Positions 7,853 through 15,185 of a stretch of 64,000 nt of DNA are shown here, piece by piece. Every line of letters begins with the position of its first letter. Within the stretch, counting starts at the first letter, position 1. The notes below the pieces were generated by a model that saw nothing but the letters and a program-made list of their open reading frames with translations, had not been told where the DNA came from and did no database searches. Source of the DNA: Conexibacter arvalis (GTDB lineage Bacteria > Actinomycetota > Thermoleophilia > Solirubrobacterales > Solirubrobacteraceae); the NCBI RefSeq assembly GCF_014199525.1, contig NZ_JACHNU010000001.1:846182-910181 (forward strand), read 5' to 3'. A program made the position numbers and the translations under genes.

Positions 7853-9391
7853 ATGGCGGCGCGGCGATTCACACGACGCGGAGCGCTGAAGGCGGGCGCG
7901 GCCGGAGCGGCCGCGGTCGGCCTGTCCGCCTGCGGTGACGAGTACGAGCCGACCGGCGCGCGGTCCTCCGACGCGCCGAACGTCATCCTGGTCGTGCTCG
8001 ACTCGACGCGGGCCGACTACATCGGCGCGTACAACCAGAACGCGCTCGCGAGAACGACGAACATCGACGCGCTCGCGAAGCGCTCGCTGAAGTTTGACCT
8101 GGCGATACCGGAGGCGATGCCGACCGGCCTCGTGCGCCGCACGCTGCTGACCGGGATGCGCAGCTTCCCCAACCGCGACTGGGTGCTGTCGCCGCCGATG
8201 CCGGCGGAGGTCGGCTGGACCCGCCCACTGCCCCACCAGCAGCTGATCACCGAGGTGCTCGGTCACGCCGGCGTCACGACCGCCTACGTCACCGACAACC
8301 CGTTCCTGATCGGCCCGCGCTACCTCGACTTCCGCCGCACGCTCGACATCGGGCGCCCCGACTTCTCGCAGGGCGCCTACCGCGCCTTCAACTCGCCGTT
8401 CAGACGCCCGGCGCCGCGCAGCGCGATCGAGAAGTACCTGATGCCGGCGCTGTCGGACACCGTCGAGGTCCGCCGCCTGCAGGACTACGTCGGCTGGAAC
8501 TCGATGTACCGCGTCGGCGAGCGCAACTACTCCGCTGCGCGCGTCATGCGCGGCGGGATGGACGCGCTCGACGACCTCAAGGACAGACAGCCGTTCTTCC
8601 TCGGCGTCGACTCGTTCGACCCGCACGAGCCGTTCGACGCGCCGCCGGTCTACGTCCGCGAGATAGAGGGGCAGCCGAAGGGGATCCAGAAGAGAGGGAT
8701 CCTGCCGATCCAGCCGTTCCTGACGCCGGCTTCCAGACTCGAGAAGGTCGACATCGACAGCGACACGCTCCAGCTGATCCGCGAGCTGTACGCCGCCGAG
8801 CTGACCTTCGTCGACGTCTGGCTCGGCAAGCTGCTGAACAAGCTCGACGACCTCGGCCTCACCGACAACACGGTCGTCTACTTCATCTCCGACCACGGCA
8901 TCACGCTCGGCGAGCACGGCATCATCGGCAAGTCGACGCCGCGCCCCTATCGCGAGATCCACCAGATCCCGTACCTGATAAAGGACCCCACCGGGCGGAT
9001 GGCCGGCAAGACGAGCAGATACTTCGCCTCGACGCACGACGTCGCGCGGACGATCCTCTCCTTCCAGGGCGTCCGGGCGCCCGGCGCGATGAACGGCGAG
9101 GACCTGACCGTCCTGTTCGACGGCCGCGAGCCGACGCCGCGCCCCTACTACACCTCCTGCTACCAGGAGACCTGGATCTGCGGCGACTACGAGTGGCTGA
9201 TGATCTCGACGCCGGACGGCTCCAGAAGAGAGCTGTACGACCTCGTCAACGACCCGGGCAACACGAGAGACGTCGCGGCGACGGCGCCGGGCGCCAGAGA
9301 GAAGATCGACGAGCTGTGGAGGGTGCTGGTGAACGAGGCCGGCGGCACGCTCCCGGTCTTCCACGACCACATCGGCGTGGTGGGCGGCTGA
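7853..9391 (+). CDS. Tat-exported lipoprotein, sulfatase/phosphotransferase fold with Thr at the nucleophile position
   Basis: A 512-residue alkaline-phosphatase-superfamily protein. The N-terminus carries a twin-arginine motif (TRRGALKAG) and a lipobox ending at C27, so it should be Tat-exported and lipid-anchored outside the membrane. Metal ligands resemble sulfatases: D50 in VVLDSTRADY and D347-H348 in ISDHGITLGEHG, with a following lysine. At the formylglycine position the usual C/S-x-P/A-x-R is T91-G-L-V-R95, so it cannot be a formylglycine sulfatase; Thr at this position is used by LtaS- and EptA/MCR-type phosphotransferases. The substrate is unknown. Its stop overlaps the next gene's ATG by one base (TGATG). 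Confidence 0.75.
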   Translation: MAARRFTRRGALKAGAAGAAAVGLSACGDEYEPTGARSSDAPNVILVVLDSTRADYIGAYNQNALARTTNIDALAKRSLKFDLAIPEAMPTGLVRRTLLTGMRSFPNRDWVLSPPMPAEVGWTRPLPHQQLITEVLGHAGVTTAYVTDNPFLIGPRYLDFRRTLDIGRPDFSQGAYRAFNSPFRRPAPRSAIEKYLMPALSDTVEVRRLQDYVGWNSMYRVGERNYSAARVMRGGMDALDDLKDRQPFFLGVDSFDPHEPFDAPPVYVREIEGQPKGIQKRGILPIQPFLTPASRLEKVDIDSDTLQLIRELYAAELTFVDVWLGKLLNKLDDLGLTDNTVVYFISDHGITLGEHGIIGKSTPRPYREIHQIPYLIKDPTGRMAGKTSRYFASTHDVARTILSFQGVRAPGAMNGEDLTVLFDGREPTPRPYYTSCYQETWICGDYEWLMISTPDGSRRELYDLVNDPGNTRDVAATAPGAREKIDELWRVLVNEAGGTLPVFHDHIGVVGG

Positions 9392-10911
9392 TGGGCGACC
9401 AGCGACGGATCTCGCGCCGCGCCCTGCTGCGCGGCGGCGGCGCCTCGGCCGGCCTCGCGGCGCTCGGCGGCGCCGGGCTGCTGTCGGCGGCCGCGAACGC
9501 ACAGGCGCAGGAGGGCGAGAGAAGACGCCCGAACGTCGTGCTCGTCGTCCTGAGCGGCGTCCGCGCCGACTACGTCGGCGCCTACGACGACGTCTTCGAC
9601 GATCGCGACGCCAAGACGCCGAACCTCGACAAGCTCTCCGACCAGTCGCTGCGCTGGAGATACGCGACGCCCGACGGCCTCGGCGCGGTGCCGATGCGCC
9701 GGGGGCTGCTGACCGGGATGCGCAGCTACCCGTTCCGCGACTGGCGGCGGACCGCGGGGATGCCGGCCGTCCCCGGCTTCAACAAGGTCTACGACTTCCA
9801 GCCGCTGCTGCCGGAGCTGGCCGCCGCCGCCGGGATCAGAACGGTCTACGTGACCGACAACCCGACGCTCGACGGCCCGCGCTTCCGCCCCTTCGTCCGC
9901 CGCACCGGCCGGCTGCCGCTGTCGAGCGGCTTCCAGCCGACCGAGCGCGACTACCTGCTGCCGCTCGGCGGCCCGGTGCAGCGGAGACGGGAGGAGCCGA
10001 CGACGAAGACGCTGCGCGCCGGCGTCAGGCTGATCGACGAGCTGAAGGGGAGACAGCCGTTCTTCCTCGCGCTCGACGCCTTCGATCCGGCCGACGCGTT
10101 CACGATGCCGCGCCAGTACCGCGCCGGCGTCGGCCCGCTCCACGACGACGTCTCGCTGCCGAAGGACCACGTCTACACCGACAGCATCAAGGTCGAGGCC
10201 GGCGACGCCGTCAAGCGCGAGGTGCGCTCCCGCTACGCCGCCGAGGTCGAGGCGATCGACAAGGAGCTCGGCAGGCTGCTCGACAAGATCGACGACGCGG
10301 GGCTCGCGGACGACACGGTCGTGATGGTCGTCAGCGACGGCGGCGTCGCGCTCGGCGAGCAGGGCGTCTACGGCAGCCCCGTCGGCGTCTGGCACCGCCG
10401 CGCCTACCACGTGCCGTTCATGCTGCGCGACCCCGAGCGCCGCTGGGCCGGCGACACCAGCTCGTGGTTCGTCTCCACCCACGACATCCCGACGACGCTG
10501 CTCGCCTTCTGGGGGATCGTCGCGCCCGGCAAGATGCAGGGCGAGGACCTGACGACCCTGCTGGAGGAGTTCGACCTGCCGCCGCGGCCGTACTACACGA
10601 CCGCGATCGACACGCACGTCGTCGTCGGCGATCGGCACTTCCTGCTGATAGGCCGCGCCGACCAGGACCGCTGGCGGCTGTACGAGGCCGAGGACGAGGA
10701 CGATCCCGACGACCTGCGCACCGAGACCGTCAAGTCGCCGACCGTCCTGGAGCGGCTGAGACGGTACGCGCTGACCGCCGCCGGCGGGACGCTGCCGCAG
10801 TTCGACGACTTCTCCGCGATCCAGCCGCGCGAGCCCGACCCGCCGGACAAGAGAGTCGCCGACGACGGCACGCTCGACGAGGACGAAGCGAGAGCGAACG
10901 AGCTGCGATGA
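9391..10911 (+). CDS. Tat-exported sulfatase-like pseudoenzyme
   Basis: A 506-residue paralogue of the preceding protein, with shared blocks GMRSYPFRDW, YVTDNP and RPYYT. The twin-arginine signal (ISRRALLRGG) is followed by an Ala-rich h-region and no clear lipobox, so it is probably released or Sec/Tat-cleaved near ANAQA. The catalytic set is lost: the first metal Asp is S55 (VVLSGVRADY), the nucleophile position is A99 (A-V-P-M-R), and the DH pair is D316-G317. It should therefore be catalytically inactive and may act as a partner, carrier or regulator of the first protein. It overlaps both neighbours (TGATG upstream, ATGA downstream). The C-terminus is acidic. Confidence 0.72.
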   Translation: MGDQRRISRRALLRGGGASAGLAALGGAGLLSAAANAQAQEGERRRPNVVLVVLSGVRADYVGAYDDVFDDRDAKTPNLDKLSDQSLRWRYATPDGLGAVPMRRGLLTGMRSYPFRDWRRTAGMPAVPGFNKVYDFQPLLPELAAAAGIRTVYVTDNPTLDGPRFRPFVRRTGRLPLSSGFQPTERDYLLPLGGPVQRRREEPTTKTLRAGVRLIDELKGRQPFFLALDAFDPADAFTMPRQYRAGVGPLHDDVSLPKDHVYTDSIKVEAGDAVKREVRSRYAAEVEAIDKELGRLLDKIDDAGLADDTVVMVVSDGGVALGEQGVYGSPVGVWHRRAYHVPFMLRDPERRWAGDTSSWFVSTHDIPTTLLAFWGIVAPGKMQGEDLTTLLEEFDLPPRPYYTTAIDTHVVVGDRHFLLIGRADQDRWRLYEAEDEDDPDDLRTETVKSPTVLERLRRYALTAAGGTLPQFDDFSAIQPREPDPPDKRVADDGTLDEDEARANELR

Positions 10912-12737
10912 GCGCGAAGAAGGCAAAGACACGCGTCAACCCGCCCGCAGAGACCCTCCACGCGATCAAGTGGAAGGTCTTCGGCGTGATGATGATCGCG
11001 TGGTTCATGTCGATGCTCGACATGTCGATCATGAACACGGCGCTCCCGGAGCTGCAGCACGACTTCGAGACCAACCTCCCGAACGCGTCGTGGGTCGTCA
11101 ACGTCTACAACATCGTCTTCGCGGTGCTGCTGGTCGCGACCGGCCGCCTCGCCGACCAGTTCGGCCGCAAGAAGATGTTCATCGGCGGTCTGCTCGTCTT
11201 CACCGTCGGCTCCGGCCTCTGCGCCGCGGCGTGGGAGATCGGCTGGCTCATAGGCTTCCGCGCGGTGCAGGCGATCGGCGCCGGCATGATCGCGCCGCTC
11301 GGCTTCGCGATGACGGCGCTCGTCTTCCCGCCGCAGCAGCGCGGCAAGGGCCTCGCGATGATCGCCGTCGTCGCGCTCGTCGCCAACGGCCTCGGCCCGG
11401 TGATCGGCGGCGGGCTGATCGAGATCGCCAGCTGGCACTGGATCTTCATCGTCAACCTGCCGCTCGGCGCCCTCGGCGTCGTGCTCGCGTGGCGCTGGTG
11501 GCCCGAGACCTACGACCTCAGCGCGACGCGGCGGATCGACTGGGTCGGGATGGCGCTGCTCGGCCTCGCCGTCTCGATGTTCACCTACGGCCTCGTCGAG
11601 GCCAACGTCAGAGGGTGGAACGACCCCCAGATCCTCTTCTTCATCCAGCTGTCGGTCGTCGTCGGGATCGGGTTCGTCTTCTGGCAGAACCGCGCGAAGG
11701 ACCCGATGGTCCCGCCGGCGCTGCTGAGAAACCGGCAGTTCCTCTCGGCCAACCTGGCGATGGTGATCCTTGGCGCCGGCGCGGTCGGCGGCCTGTTCCT
11801 GCTGGCGCAGGTGTTCGTCAACCTGTGGGGCTTCTCGCAGCTGGAGGCCGGGCTCTGCCTGCTGCCGATCGGCGTCTGCGGCGGCCTCGTCTGGCCGCTG
11901 GTCGGACGGGCGGCCGACAACGCGCCGGCCTACCGGCTCGCGATCCCGGCGCTCAGCTCGCTCGCGATCGGCCTGATCTGGTTCTCGTTCATGCCCTCCA
12001 CCTACGAGGGGGTCGGCGACTACCTGATCGTGCTGCCGGGCCTCGTCTTCATCGGCATGGGCATCGGCGTCGGCTTCCCGACGCTCAACGTCGGCGCGAT
12101 GAACGCCGCGATGGGGCCAAACCTCGGCGTCGCCTCGGGCATCATCAACACCTCCCGCCAGCTCGGCTCGGCGCTCGGCGTCGCGCTGCTGATCACCGTC
12201 TTCACGACGACCGCGGGCTGGCACCTGTCGTGGAAGCGCGACCCGATCCACGACAACTCGTTCGTCTACGCCGTCCCCGACCCCGTCGCGTTCGGCGCCG
12301 TGCGGGCCGACATAGCCGAGTTCTCCGGCGCGGCGAAGCGCAAGGAGACCGCGCCGGTCGGCTACGACCGCTGGCTGCGCCGCGAGGCCGCGGGCGTCGC
12401 GCGCGACGGCTTCGGCTGGGCCTTCCGGATCGCCGCGCTGCTGCTGCTGGCGATGATCCCGGTCGCGCGCAAGCTGACGCTGACGCCGGCCGAGGCGCGC
12501 GCCAACGCGGCGCGGATGGCGCAGCAGGCGTCCGCCGGCGCGGCGGCCGCGCCCCCGGCCGGCGCGGGCGTCGGAGCGCCCGGCGTGGCGGCCGGCGTGC
12601 CCGCGATACCGGCGGGCGCCGGGGCGGTCGCGGCCGGCGCCGGCAACGGCGGCGTCGAAGGGCGGATCGCCGAGCTCGAGTCCGCGCTGCGCGGGCTGCG
12701 CGCCGAGCTGTCGGAGAGACAGGAGCGGCCGCGGTGA
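10908..12737 (+). CDS. DHA2-family MFS transporter with C-terminal extension
   Basis: A 609-residue membrane protein with about 14 hydrophobic segments, motif A (GRLADQFGRKKM) and motif C-like GLGPVIGGGLIE, typical of EmrB/QacA exporters. A roughly 60-residue loop follows the TTAGWHLSWKRD segment, and the C-terminus adds an Ala/Gly/Pro-rich linker and a short coiled coil (GRIAELESALRGLRAELSER) not usual in this family. It overlaps the pseudoenzyme by four bases (ATGA), so the three products are made together. The context suggests it moves a substrate or product of the exported sulfatase-fold proteins, or a lipid-linked intermediate; this is inference. Confidence 0.82.
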   Translation: MSAKKAKTRVNPPAETLHAIKWKVFGVMMIAWFMSMLDMSIMNTALPELQHDFETNLPNASWVVNVYNIVFAVLLVATGRLADQFGRKKMFIGGLLVFTVGSGLCAAAWEIGWLIGFRAVQAIGAGMIAPLGFAMTALVFPPQQRGKGLAMIAVVALVANGLGPVIGGGLIEIASWHWIFIVNLPLGALGVVLAWRWWPETYDLSATRRIDWVGMALLGLAVSMFTYGLVEANVRGWNDPQILFFIQLSVVVGIGFVFWQNRAKDPMVPPALLRNRQFLSANLAMVILGAGAVGGLFLLAQVFVNLWGFSQLEAGLCLLPIGVCGGLVWPLVGRAADNAPAYRLAIPALSSLAIGLIWFSFMPSTYEGVGDYLIVLPGLVFIGMGIGVGFPTLNVGAMNAAMGPNLGVASGIINTSRQLGSALGVALLITVFTTTAGWHLSWKRDPIHDNSFVYAVPDPVAFGAVRADIAEFSGAAKRKETAPVGYDRWLRREAAGVARDGFGWAFRIAALLLLAMIPVARKLTLTPAEARANAARMAQQASAGAAAAPPAGAGVGAPGVAAGVPAIPAGAGAVAAGAGNGGVEGRIAELESALRGLRAELSERQERPR

Positions 12738-12745
12738 GCAGCCGC

Positions 12746-12799
12746 CCCCGCTGTCGGGGCGCGCGCCCCGCCCTCCGCGCGGCCGCCTCAGGCGGCCGC
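12746..12799. terminator. two hairpins between convergent MFS and PHP genes
   Basis: CCCCG-CTGT-CGGGG (12746-12759) follows the + strand stop. A second perfect inverted repeat, GCGGCCGCC / GGCGGCCGC (12779-12787 and 12791-12799), is centred on the TCA that is the PHP gene's stop. They probably terminate the two converging transcripts. Confidence 0.45.
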
Positions 12800-13687
12800 T
12801 TCGGCGGCGCGCGCCGCCGCCTGCTCCAGCTTGGAGAGGTCGGGCGCGTACCCGTGCAGCTCGTGCGCGAGGAAGGTTCTGAAGAGACGGTGCTCGGGAC
12901 CGTGGTAGTCGGAGGAGCCGGTCGTCAGCAGGCCGAGCGCGGCGCAGCGGTCGGCGAGCAGCTTCGTCTGCGCGGCGTCGTGGGTCGGGTAGAAGACCTC
13001 GACGCCGTCGAGCCCGGCCGCTGCGAAGCGGTCGATCGCGCCGAGCACCTCGGCGTCGGCGTCGATGTCCCAGAAGGGATGCGCCCAGATCGCCAGGCCG
13101 CCGGCCTCGTGGATCCAGTCGATCGCCTCGAAGACGGTTGGATGCGTGCGCGCGAGGTATCCGGGCGTACCGGGTATCAGGTACGCAGGGATGAACGAGG
13201 AGACGTCATCGTGCCCCTCGCGCTCCAGGCGCTCCGCGTTGTCCGGGTGGATCAGGACCGCCTGCGCGAGGTGGGGACGCCCGATCGGCTTGCCGGCCGC
13301 GCGCCGGGCGGCGAGCGGCGCGTCGTCGACGGCGAAGCCGAGCTCGTTCAGCTTCTGCGCCATGCGCTCGGCGCGCAGCTCGCGGTCAGCGCGGGCGGCG
13401 CGCAGGCGCTCGGCGAGGGCGGGATCGCGATGGTCGATCCCGTAGCCAAGGACGTGGAGGTCCTCGTAGGACCCGTCGACCGCGGAGATCTCCGTGGACG
13501 GGACGATCGCGACGCCGTGGCGGGCCCCCGCGGCGATCGCCTCGCCGACGCCGTCGACGGTGTCGTGGTCGGACAGGGCGAGCAGCTGCACGCCGGCCGC
13601 GGCCGCGTTCGCGACCACCTCCGCGGGCGCCAGGACGCCGTCGGAGTGGAGCGAGTGCGACTGCAGGTCGAAGGTCGGCTTCGTCAT
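12788..13687 (-). CDS. PHP-domain phosphoesterase (TrpH/YciV-like)
   Basis: A 299-residue PHP-fold protein. The N-terminal H-x-H (LQSHSLHSDG), the SDHDTVDG block, the PSTEIS glutamate, an internal IWAHPFW histidine and the C-terminal TGSSDYHG motif together make the usual trinuclear metal site. Members of this branch (RNase AM/TrpH, YciV) remove nucleotides from short 5'-phosphorylated RNAs or hydrolyse pAp-type nucleotides. The neighbouring divergent cysC makes PAPS, whose use releases pAp, so a pAp-recycling role fits the context but is not proved. Cytoplasmic; no signal peptide. Confidence 0.82.
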   Translation of the reverse strand: MTKPTFDLQSHSLHSDGVLAPAEVVANAAAAGVQLLALSDHDTVDGVGEAIAAGARHGVAIVPSTEISAVDGSYEDLHVLGYGIDHRDPALAERLRAARADRELRAERMAQKLNELGFAVDDAPLAARRAAGKPIGRPHLAQAVLIHPDNAERLEREGHDDVSSFIPAYLIPGTPGYLARTHPTVFEAIDWIHEAGGLAIWAHPFWDIDADAEVLGAIDRFAAAGLDGVEVFYPTHDAAQTKLLADRCAALGLLTTGSSDYHGPEHRLFRTFLAHELHGYAPDLSKLEQAAARAAEAAA

Positions 13688-13770: not shown

Positions 13771-14397
13771 ATGATGACGAGTGCCAACGTCACCTGGCAC
13801 GAGGGAGCGGTCGGCCGCATGGAGCGGTGGCAGTCGCTCGGGGCCCGTGGCGCGACGCTCTGGTTCACCGGCCTGCCGGCCTCGGGCAAGTCGACGGTCG
13901 CCGCGGCCGTCGAGGCCCGCCTCGTGCGTGACGGTCGGGCCGCCTACCGGCTCGACGGCGACAACCTCCGCCACGGCGTCTGCGGCGACCTCGGCTTCTC
14001 GCCCGCGGACCGCGAGGAGAACGTCCGCCGCACCGCCGAGGTCGCGCGGCTGCTCGCCGACGCCGGCACGATCGCGATCGTCTCCGTCGTCTCGCCGTTC
14101 GCGGCCGGCCGCGCCGCCGCGCGCGCGCTGCACGAGCGCGACGGCCTCCAGTTCGTCGAGATCTTCGTCAACACCCCCGTCGAGGAGTGCATCCGGCGCG
14201 ACCCGAAGGGGCTGTACAAGCGCGCCCGCGCCGGCGAGCTGCAGGGGATGACCGGCGTCGACGCGCCGTACGAGGCGCCGGTGGACCCCGACGTCGAACT
14301 GACCTTCGGCTGCGACGTCGGCGAGGCGGTCGAGCGGGTCCTCAGCGCGCTCGACCCGGCGCCCGCCGCAGTGCGAGGTACGCAGCCCGCGCGCTGA
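13771..14397 (+). CDS. cysC: adenylyl-sulfate kinase
   Basis: A 208-residue APS kinase that phosphorylates adenosine 5'-phosphosulfate to PAPS. The P-loop is GLPASGKST (residues 34-42); RLDGDNLRHGVCGDLGFS is the APS-binding block; NTPVEECIRRDPKGLYK and the late TGVDAPYEAP motif are diagnostic. The length is normal. The ATG at 13771 follows GAGGAAGGA; a second ATG immediately after is also possible. It stands alone without cysDN or a sulfotransferase in view, so its PAPS may serve sulfation elsewhere. It is divergent from the PHP phosphoesterase, which might clear pAp. Confidence 0.9.
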   Translation: MMTSANVTWHEGAVGRMERWQSLGARGATLWFTGLPASGKSTVAAAVEARLVRDGRAAYRLDGDNLRHGVCGDLGFSPADREENVRRTAEVARLLADAGTIAIVSVVSPFAAGRAAARALHERDGLQFVEIFVNTPVEECIRRDPKGLYKRARAGELQGMTGVDAPYEAPVDPDVELTFGCDVGEAVERVLSALDPAPAAVRGTQPAR

Positions 14398-14559: not shown

Positions 14560-14781
14560 ATGAAAGCGATCGTGTCCGAGAAGGGCCAGGTGACGATCCC
14601 GAAAGCGCTGCGAGATCGGCTCGGGATACGCGCCGGCGAGGTACTCGACTTCGAGGCCGAGCGCGGGCGCTTGGTCGCGCGCAAGCAGGTCGAGAACGAT
14701 CCTGTCGACGCCGTGTACGGGATTCTCGACCTCGGCGCCTCGACTGACGAGCTGCTGACGGAGCTGCGCGGCAGCGCGTGA
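14560..14781 (+). CDS. AbrB/MazE-type antitoxin
   Basis: A 73-residue DNA-binding antitoxin. Residues 1-45 form the swapped-hairpin AbrB domain (VSEKGQVTIPKALRDRLGI, GEVLDFEAERGRLVARK), and the C-terminal 28 residues (DPVDAVYGILDLG onward) should wrap the toxin. It would bind its own promoter together with the toxin. The stop overlaps the toxin's GTG by four bases, so the pair is translationally coupled. GC is lower than in the neighbours, which fits a mobile addiction module. There is no clear ribosome site; a leaderless transcript is likely. Confidence 0.85.
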   Translation: MKAIVSEKGQVTIPKALRDRLGIRAGEVLDFEAERGRLVARKQVENDPVDAVYGILDLGASTDELLTELRGSA

Positions 14782-15185
14782 TCACCGCCGTCGACACGAG
14801 CGTCCTACTCGACGTCTTGGGCGCTGATCCCGACTACGGCGACGCATCACGCGCTGCGTTGAGGGAATGCCTGCGCGACGGCGCGCTCGTCGCCTGTGAC
14901 GTCGTCTGGGCGGAGACGGCTGCCTTCTTTCCCGACGCCCGGCGCGCGGCAACCGCGCTGGACCGGCTCGGCGTGCGCTTCTCCGCGCTCGATGAGGAGG
15001 CGTCGCTCGCCGCCGCGAGAGCGTGGCGGGCCTACCGCCGAAGGGGCGGCAGACGGGCGCGGGTCATCGGGGACTTCCTGGTCGGCGGACATGCCTCCAT
15101 CCATGCCGATCAGCTGCTCACGCGCGACCGCGGCTTCTCGCGGACGCACTTCAGAGGGCTGCGGCTGCTGGACCCGTCGCGCTGA
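14778..15185 (+). CDS. PIN-domain toxin (VapC family)
   Basis: A 135-residue PIN ribonuclease. The acidic residues are D6 (AVDTSVLLDVL), E46 (VWAETAAF), D99 (IGDFLVGGHA) and D117 (LTRDRGF), the standard four for Mg-dependent single-strand RNA cleavage; known VapCs cut tRNAs or the sarcin-ricin loop. It starts with GTG inside the vapB stop (GTGA). The length is typical. It is the partner of the preceding AbrB-type antitoxin. Confidence 0.86.
   Translation: MITAVDTSVLLDVLGADPDYGDASRAALRECLRDGALVACDVVWAETAAFFPDARRAATALDRLGVRFSALDEEASLAAARAWRAYRRRGGRRARVIGDFLVGGHASIHADQLLTRDRGFSRTHFRGLRLLDPSR

What the first reader, a model, noticed from the sequence alone, without database searches (positions are those of the whole stretch)
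7853..12737. Operon of an active-looking Thr-type sulfatase-fold enzyme, its dead paralogue and an MFS exporter
Two tandem Tat-exported sulfatase-fold proteins differ at every catalytic position. The first keeps D50, D347 and H348 but has T91 where sulfatases need Cys/Ser; Thr there is used by LtaS/EptA-type phosphotransferases. The second has S55, A99 and G317 and should be inactive. Both are translationally coupled to a DHA2 MFS protein with an added coiled coil. An exported enzyme, a pseudoenzyme partner and a transporter made in fixed ratio suggest an envelope-modifying machine not described as such.
Basis: partly seen in the sequence, partly recalled or inferred. Interest (0 to 1): 0.72.

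Follow-up and report, generated by a model that had tools for sequence, protein, structure and literature searches.

The report
Conserved sulfatase-like enzyme, dead twin, exporter
Soil bacteria related to Conexibacter carry a fixed three-gene unit: an exported sulfatase-like enzyme whose usual cysteine is replaced by threonine, a copy of it that has lost its active site, and a membrane exporter; it probably modifies a sulfated or phosphorylated surface molecule, but its substrate is unknown.

Summary
Gene A (7853-9391), gene B (9391-10911) and gene C (10908-12737) overlap stop-to-start. A and B have the alkaline-phosphatase/S1-sulfatase fold, and C is a DHA2/EmrB-type MFS protein. T91 of A lies exactly where sulfatases have Cys or Ser. 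I found A+B in ten genomes from at least two families of Solirubrobacterales. In nine of them C follows directly; in the tenth it lies a few genes away.

All A proteins keep D50, T91, R95, H258, D347, H348 and K360. All B proteins have lost T91, H258 and K360. B is a single clade (100/100), so one duplication was followed by loss of the active site. A is a predicted Tat lipoprotein.

The LtaS/EptA analogy is not specific. The Thr sits in a sulfatase-type T-x-x-x-R motif shared by a large family that also occurs singly. The best Foldseek match is phosphonate monoester hydrolase. New here: these genes often lie beside sulfation genes (PHP-type pAp phosphatase, APS kinase, sulfotransferases) or capsule-type genes.

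Best reading: a metal-dependent, Thr-nucleophile phosphodiesterase or phosphotransferase with a pseudoenzyme partner and a dedicated exporter, acting on a (probably sulfated) envelope molecule. Catalysis and substrate are inferred.

The parts
7853..9391 (+). Gene A: Thr-type sulfatase-fold enzyme, predicted Tat lipoprotein (twin Arg R8R9, lipobox C27 at 7931-7933)
8123..8125 (+). Codon of T91, predicted nucleophile, in place of the Cys/Ser of the C/S-x-P-x-R sulfatase motif
8000..8002 (+). Codon of D50, predicted metal ligand
8624..8626 (+). Codon of H258 (PHEP motif, counterpart of the sulfatase/PMH active-site His)
8891..8896 (+). Codons of D347 and H348, predicted metal ligands
8930..8932 (+). 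Codon of K360 (GK motif, counterpart of a sulfatase/PMH active-site Lys)
9391..10911 (+). Gene B: sulfatase-fold pseudoenzyme paralogue, Tat signal without lipobox, acidic C-terminal tail
9685..9687 (+). Codon of A99 of B, where A has T91
9553..9555 (+). Codon of S55 of B, where A has the metal ligand D50
10339..10341 (+). Codon of G317 of B, where A has H348
10908..12737 (+). Gene C: DHA2/EmrB-type MFS transporter dedicated to the triad
12650..12734 (+). C-terminal coiled-coil-like tail of C, not present in all orthologues
   Evidence: read from sequence
12788..13687 (-). PHP-family phosphoesterase, nearest solved structure 2yb1 (amidohydrolase; Cv1693 from own knowledge); probable 3',5'-pAp phosphatase; recurrent neighbour of the triad
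13771..14397 (+). APS kinase (CysC, makes PAPS); beside the PHP gene in four triad genomes and fused to it in two

Best explanation
The three genes are one functional unit of the cell envelope. Shown: conserved linkage, order and overlap; a complete one-metal alkaline-phosphatase-superfamily catalytic set in A, with Thr as the only possible nucleophile at the right place; systematic loss of that set in B; A as a predicted lipoprotein with the lipobox Cys conserved across its clade. Inferred: C moves a substrate or donor across the membrane. A, anchored on the outer face, attacks a phosphodiester (or similar charged ester) with T91, using one metal held by D50, D347 and H348, with R95, H258 and K360 binding the charged group. 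The phospho-Thr intermediate is then released to water (phosphodiesterase) or to an acceptor (phosphotransferase). B, same fold without chemistry, binds A or presents substrate or acceptor. From the surroundings, the molecule handled is probably a sulfated surface glycan or lipid.
For: Position of T91: HMM alignment to 5g2v (S-G-P-S-R over T-G-P-A-R) and predicted helix start at 91. Residue table: 31 of 31 Thermoleophilia A and paralogue sequences keep D50/T91/R95/H258/D347/H348/K360; all 10 B sequences lost T91, H258 and K360, 9 lost H348, 5 lost D50, while R53, R95 and D148 stay. B is one clade at 100/100, the ten triad A proteins one clade at 98/95, with the single gene L105 at the base. 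C orthologues: 8 of 8 triad genomes plus G049, out of 61. Best Foldseek match is phosphonate monoester hydrolase 2w8s, E 1e-23. Sulfation context: PHP beside the triad in 7 genomes, CysC beside or fused to PHP in 6, a PF17784 sulfotransferase beside A in L101 and beside C in L104. All 7 class-level triad genomes have PF17784 against 36 of 329 overall (1e-7 by genome, 1e-4 by genus). In another family of the phylum, relatives lie with WecG, Bac_transf, Wzx-type and sulfotransferase genes.
Against: No activity, metal or substrate is known for any family member. A lacks the transmembrane domain of LtaS/EptA-type transferases. The sulfation link is by neighbourhood and co-occurrence only: L100 has none of these genes near the triad, PHP is nearly universal in the order, and related genomes are not independent. 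L105 is a basal A-like gene without a partner. G049 has C without A or B.
Confidence: 0.55

Rival explanations
1. A is an LtaS/EptA-like phosphotransferase that decorates the envelope with phosphoethanolamine or phosphoglycerol.
For: Thr nucleophile; weak NCBIfam hits to MCR and LtaS models over residues 296-411; VIA Z about 28 to YejM.
Against: Those hits are far below cut-offs (20-25 bits against 500-1250). A has no membrane domain, and the Thr sits in the sulfatase T-x-x-x-R motif, whereas SulfAtlas describes Thr-bearing PF00884 proteins as TXNXE (PMC5066984). Thr is also the nucleophile of other superfamily hydrolases such as NPP and PafA (own knowledge).
Confidence: 0.15
2. A is a sulfatase or a sulfuryl-handling enzyme acting directly on a sulfate ester made by neighbouring sulfotransferases.
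For: Recurrent sulfotransferase, PHP and CysC neighbours; S1-sulfatase fold, with the Arg, His and Lys of the active site kept.
Against: Thr cannot be oxidised to formylglycine; the result would be a ketone (PMC5066984). The GKxH sulfate-site motif of sulfatases is replaced by TDNP in A.
Confidence: 0.15
3. The triad has no catalytic role: A is also a binding protein, and A and B serve as sensor or scaffold for the transporter, as YejM/PbgA does in LPS control.
For: B is certainly degenerate; sulfatase-fold envelope proteins with regulatory roles exist (YejM/LapC; own knowledge, weak NCBIfam hit of B).
Against: All seven catalytic positions of A are invariant across lineages that diverged to about 57% identity, which is hard to explain without catalysis.
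Confidence: 0.12

Closest known systems
Phosphonate monoester hydrolase / phosphodiesterase (SulfAtlas S1_0; RlPMH 2vqr, BcPMH 2w8s)
   Same: Best Foldseek hits (E 1e-23); same D-x-x-R-A-D and S-D-H-G metal motifs, PH and GK motifs
   Different: PMH uses formylglycine from Cys; here Thr, in the sulfatase spacing (4 residues before Arg). About 21% identity. I know of no PMH with an exporter or pseudoenzyme partner (own knowledge)
S1 formylglycine sulfatases (for example BT4656, 5g2v)
   Same: Fold; nucleophile position and Arg of C/S-x-P-x-R; LLTG; His and Lys of the active site
   Different: Thr instead of Cys/Ser; the GKxH signature is replaced by TDNP
LtaS / EptA / MCR phosphotransferases and YejM
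   Same: Superfamily fold and Thr nucleophile; export to the outer face
   Different: Those have N-terminal membrane helices and a different Thr motif; profile scores far below cut-offs
EmrB/DHA2 MFS exporters (TIGR00711)
   Same: C scores above the subfamily cut-off
   Different: C lies in an operon with A and B; its close orthologues occur almost only with them

Membership tests
S1 formylglycine-dependent sulfatase | Sulfatase fold / PF00884 | tested here: met
S1 formylglycine-dependent sulfatase | Cys or Ser nucleophile in C/S-x-P-x-R (PS00523) | tested here: not met
   Thr at this position in all A and in all sampled paralogues except one Ser
S1 formylglycine-dependent sulfatase | Second signature ...G-K-x-H (PS00149) | tested here: not met
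   Replaced by T-D-N-P in A; D148 invariant in the whole family
Phosphonate monoester hydrolase (S1_0) | Structural similarity | tested here: met
   Best Foldseek hits
Phosphonate monoester hydrolase (S1_0) | Formylglycine nucleophile from Cys | tested here: not met
   The PMH Cys aligns with A88 or T91; neither is Cys
LtaS/EptA/MCR phosphotransferase | Thr nucleophile in the alkaline-phosphatase fold | tested here: met
   Position only, not reactivity:
LtaS/EptA/MCR phosphotransferase | Family profile above its curated cut-off | tested here: not met
   LtaS 20.8 of 970 bits, P_eth_NH2_trans 21.1 of 500
LtaS/EptA/MCR phosphotransferase | N-terminal multi-helix membrane domain | tested here: not met
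   Only a Tat/lipoprotein signal precedes the domain at residue 42; read from sequence and the model
LtaS/EptA/MCR phosphotransferase | Transfer of a phospho-group from a phospholipid | not testable with these tools
   needs an assay
EmrB/DHA2 MFS (C) | TIGR00711 above cut-off | tested here: met
   273 bits against a cut-off of 230
Pseudoenzyme (B) | Fold kept, catalytic residues lost, reading frame conserved | tested here: met
   Model pLDDT 81, Z 33.6 to 6hr5; residues lost in 10 of 10; no internal stops in the B genes translated
Pseudoenzyme (B) | No activity in vitro | not testable with these tools
   needs an assay
pAp phosphatase of the PHP family (gene 12788-13687) | Homology to the Cv1693/YciV-type PHP phosphoesterases | tested here: met
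   2yb1 E 9e-32; the pAp activity itself is from own knowledge of Cv1693
pAp phosphatase of the PHP family (gene 12788-13687) | Hydrolysis of 3',5'-pAp | not testable with these tools
   needs an assay

The most novel reading that the evidence does not exclude
A is an extracytoplasmic transferase that moves a sulfuryl or phosphoryl group through a covalent Thr intermediate onto an exported glycan or lipid, with the pseudoenzyme B acting as acceptor-binding subunit and C supplying the substrate: a sulfatase-fold group-transfer machine for surface sulfation that is not described.
Probability: 0.1. Interest if true: 0.85.

Novelty: new variant of a known kind. Interest (0 to 1): 0.52.

Why it matters
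Thr-bearing 'sulfatases' are widely annotated as sulfatases although, as SulfAtlas points out, Thr cannot give formylglycine; what they do is an open question. This locus offers a clean system: an active-looking Thr form, its dead copy and a dedicated exporter, nearly always together, plus a genomic hint (sulfotransferases, PAPS supply, capsule genes) about the substrate class. It would also be an example of a conserved enzyme/pseudoenzyme pair outside the membrane.

Tried and rejected
Thr as a trait of A alone: rejected, all sampled relatives have it bar one Ser. Decaying pseudogene for B: rejected, no stops in the B genes translated and the frame is kept at about 40% identity; B's non-synonymous distances are however roughly 1.3 to 2.1 times those of A, and dN/dS values themselves are unreliable because synonymous sites are limited by GC bias. 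Misalignment of the nucleophile by three residues (PMH Cys over A88): considered; the sulfatase spacing and the helix start favour T91. Literature on Thr nucleophiles in sulfatases: first query empty; only the SulfAtlas remark was found. Conexibacter and sulfatase: nothing relevant. Sulfotransferase link as proof of function: not accepted, because some PF17784 genes sit with type III PKS-like genes and may serve other products. Complex prediction of A with B was not possible with these tools.

Full report
What is there. The window lies in a Conexibacter-like genome (G000:C1:846182-910181; named relatives include Conexibacter sp. CPCC 205762 and CPCC 206217). A's stop and B's start share one base, and B and C overlap by 4 nt. 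Pfam and NCBIfam confirm two sulfatase-fold proteins and one EmrB-type exporter.

Conservation of the triad. Searching 61 related genomes and one genome per species in GTDB gave ten A+B pairs: the window, G003, L097, L098, L099 (same genus), L101 (same family), L100, L102, L103 (another family of the order) and L104 (a Solirubrobacterales MAG). In nine, C follows directly; in L104 C lies upstream with a sulfotransferase and a PHP gene between. A and B overlap by 1, 4 or 8 nt in the copies measured. C orthologues at E below 1e-100 are found in exactly the eight triad genomes of the 61-genome set, plus G049, which lacks A and B. In 329 genomes of the class, the triad's A is present in only seven; an eighth, G011, has a short relic. 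An A-like gene at the base of the clade (L105) stands alone.

Active site. The profile of the family aligned to solved structures puts T91-G-x-x-R95 over S77-G-P-S-R of the sulfatase 5g2v (that Ser77 is its nucleophile is own knowledge), and the AlphaFold model (pLDDT 78, core above 90) starts a helix at T91 shortly after a strand, as sulfatases do. In 31 of 31 A and paralogue sequences of Thermoleophilia D50, T91, R95, H258, D347, H348 and K360 are invariant. In all ten B sequences T91 (nine Ala, one Ser), H258 and K360 are lost, H348 in nine and D50 in five, while R53, R95 and D148 remain. B still models well (pLDDT 81) with Z 33.6 (rmsd 2.7 over 338 residues) to the S1_25 sulfatase module 6hr5. 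A phylogeny gives B as one clade (100/100), the ten triad A proteins as one clade (98/95), and the other paralogues apart. One duplication followed by loss of catalysis explains this.

What kind of enzyme. A's Thr sits in the motif of S1 sulfatases. SulfAtlas states that Thr-bearing PF00884 proteins carry TXNXE instead of (C/S)xPxR, and that Thr cannot be oxidised to formylglycine (PMC5066984). The family described here has T-x-x-x-R, and its second sulfatase signature, GKxH, is replaced by TDNP. The best Foldseek match is phosphonate monoester hydrolase/phosphodiesterase, although VIA Z scores for many S1 sulfatases, PMH and YejM are close (28-34). A one-metal phosphodiesterase or phosphotransferase with a Thr nucleophile is therefore the best guess; this step is inferred.

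Location. A's signal has a twin Arg and an invariant lipobox Cys27 in the ten triad A proteins. A should be tethered to the outer face of the membrane next to C, while B is exported without a lipid anchor. B ends in an acidic tail that in L102, L103 and L104 resembles DxDxDG calcium-binding repeats (read from sequence).

Surroundings. A PHP-family phosphoesterase (nearest structure 2yb1, E 9e-32) lies beside the triad in seven genomes, and an APS kinase lies next to that PHP in four and is fused to it in two. In L101 and L104 a PF17784 sulfotransferase is adjacent to A or C, and L101 also has a second sulfotransferase, an acyltransferase and genes that read like sugar-nucleotide genes. A paralogue in the own genome (G000:C11) is also next to a PF17784 gene. 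PF17784 occurs in 36 of 329 class genomes but in 7 of 7 with the triad (1e-7 by genome, 1e-4 by genus). In another family of the phylum, relatives of A without an evident signal peptide lie with WecG, sugar-1-phosphate transferase, Wzx-type flippase and sulfotransferase genes in three loci. This points to sulfated surface polymers as the setting, but it is correlation. A PHP and/or CysC match is found in 57 of 61 relatives, and PHP and CysC are also neighbours in some genomes without the triad.

Conclusion. The mechanism is plausible but untested, and the LtaS/EptA label is not supported specifically. It is a new variant of known parts (S1-sulfatase fold, EmrB exporter) in an arrangement for which I found no description in the papers searched.

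Noticed in passing
L102:12717-14168 (-), L103:10502-11950 (-): PHP phosphoesterase fused to APS kinase in one protein; separate neighbouring genes in Conexibacter. Suggests PAPS synthesis and pAp removal are coupled.
   Followed up: partly
L147:5466-7235, L150:5889-7653, L153:4848-6571: PF17784 sulfotransferase next to a gene that reads like a type III polyketide synthase, resembling the sulfated adipostatin case (AdpST, PMC12135136).
   Followed up: no
L164, L171, L174 (family f23 of the phylum): Apparently cytoplasmic Thr-type sulfatase-fold genes inside capsule-like loci with WecG, Bac_transf, flippase and sulfotransferase genes; 1-4 copies per genome.
   Followed up: partly
L165:2913-5862: Tandem pair of Thr-type genes in G402; the upstream one has Gly at the D50 metal position in the alignment but keeps Thr, perhaps a second independent case of a degenerating partner.
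   Followed up: no
L107, L109, L113, L088: Thr-type paralogues sit beside genes that read like methylmalonyl-CoA mutase and an acyl-CoA carboxylase subunit in several Thermoleophilaceae genomes, a conserved but unexplained place.
   Followed up: no
L145:6187-8262 (G049): The only C orthologue without A and B; its reading frame begins with a NUDIX-like segment (with one stop reported).
   Followed up: no
window 14560-15185 (+): Likely AbrB/VapB-VapC type toxin-antitoxin pair downstream of the APS kinase (read from sequence).
   Followed up: no
C-terminal ends of B in L102 (up to 10813), L103 (up to 8868) and L104 (up to 11209): B proteins end in Asp-rich DxDxDG-like repeats that could bind calcium.
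   Followed up: no
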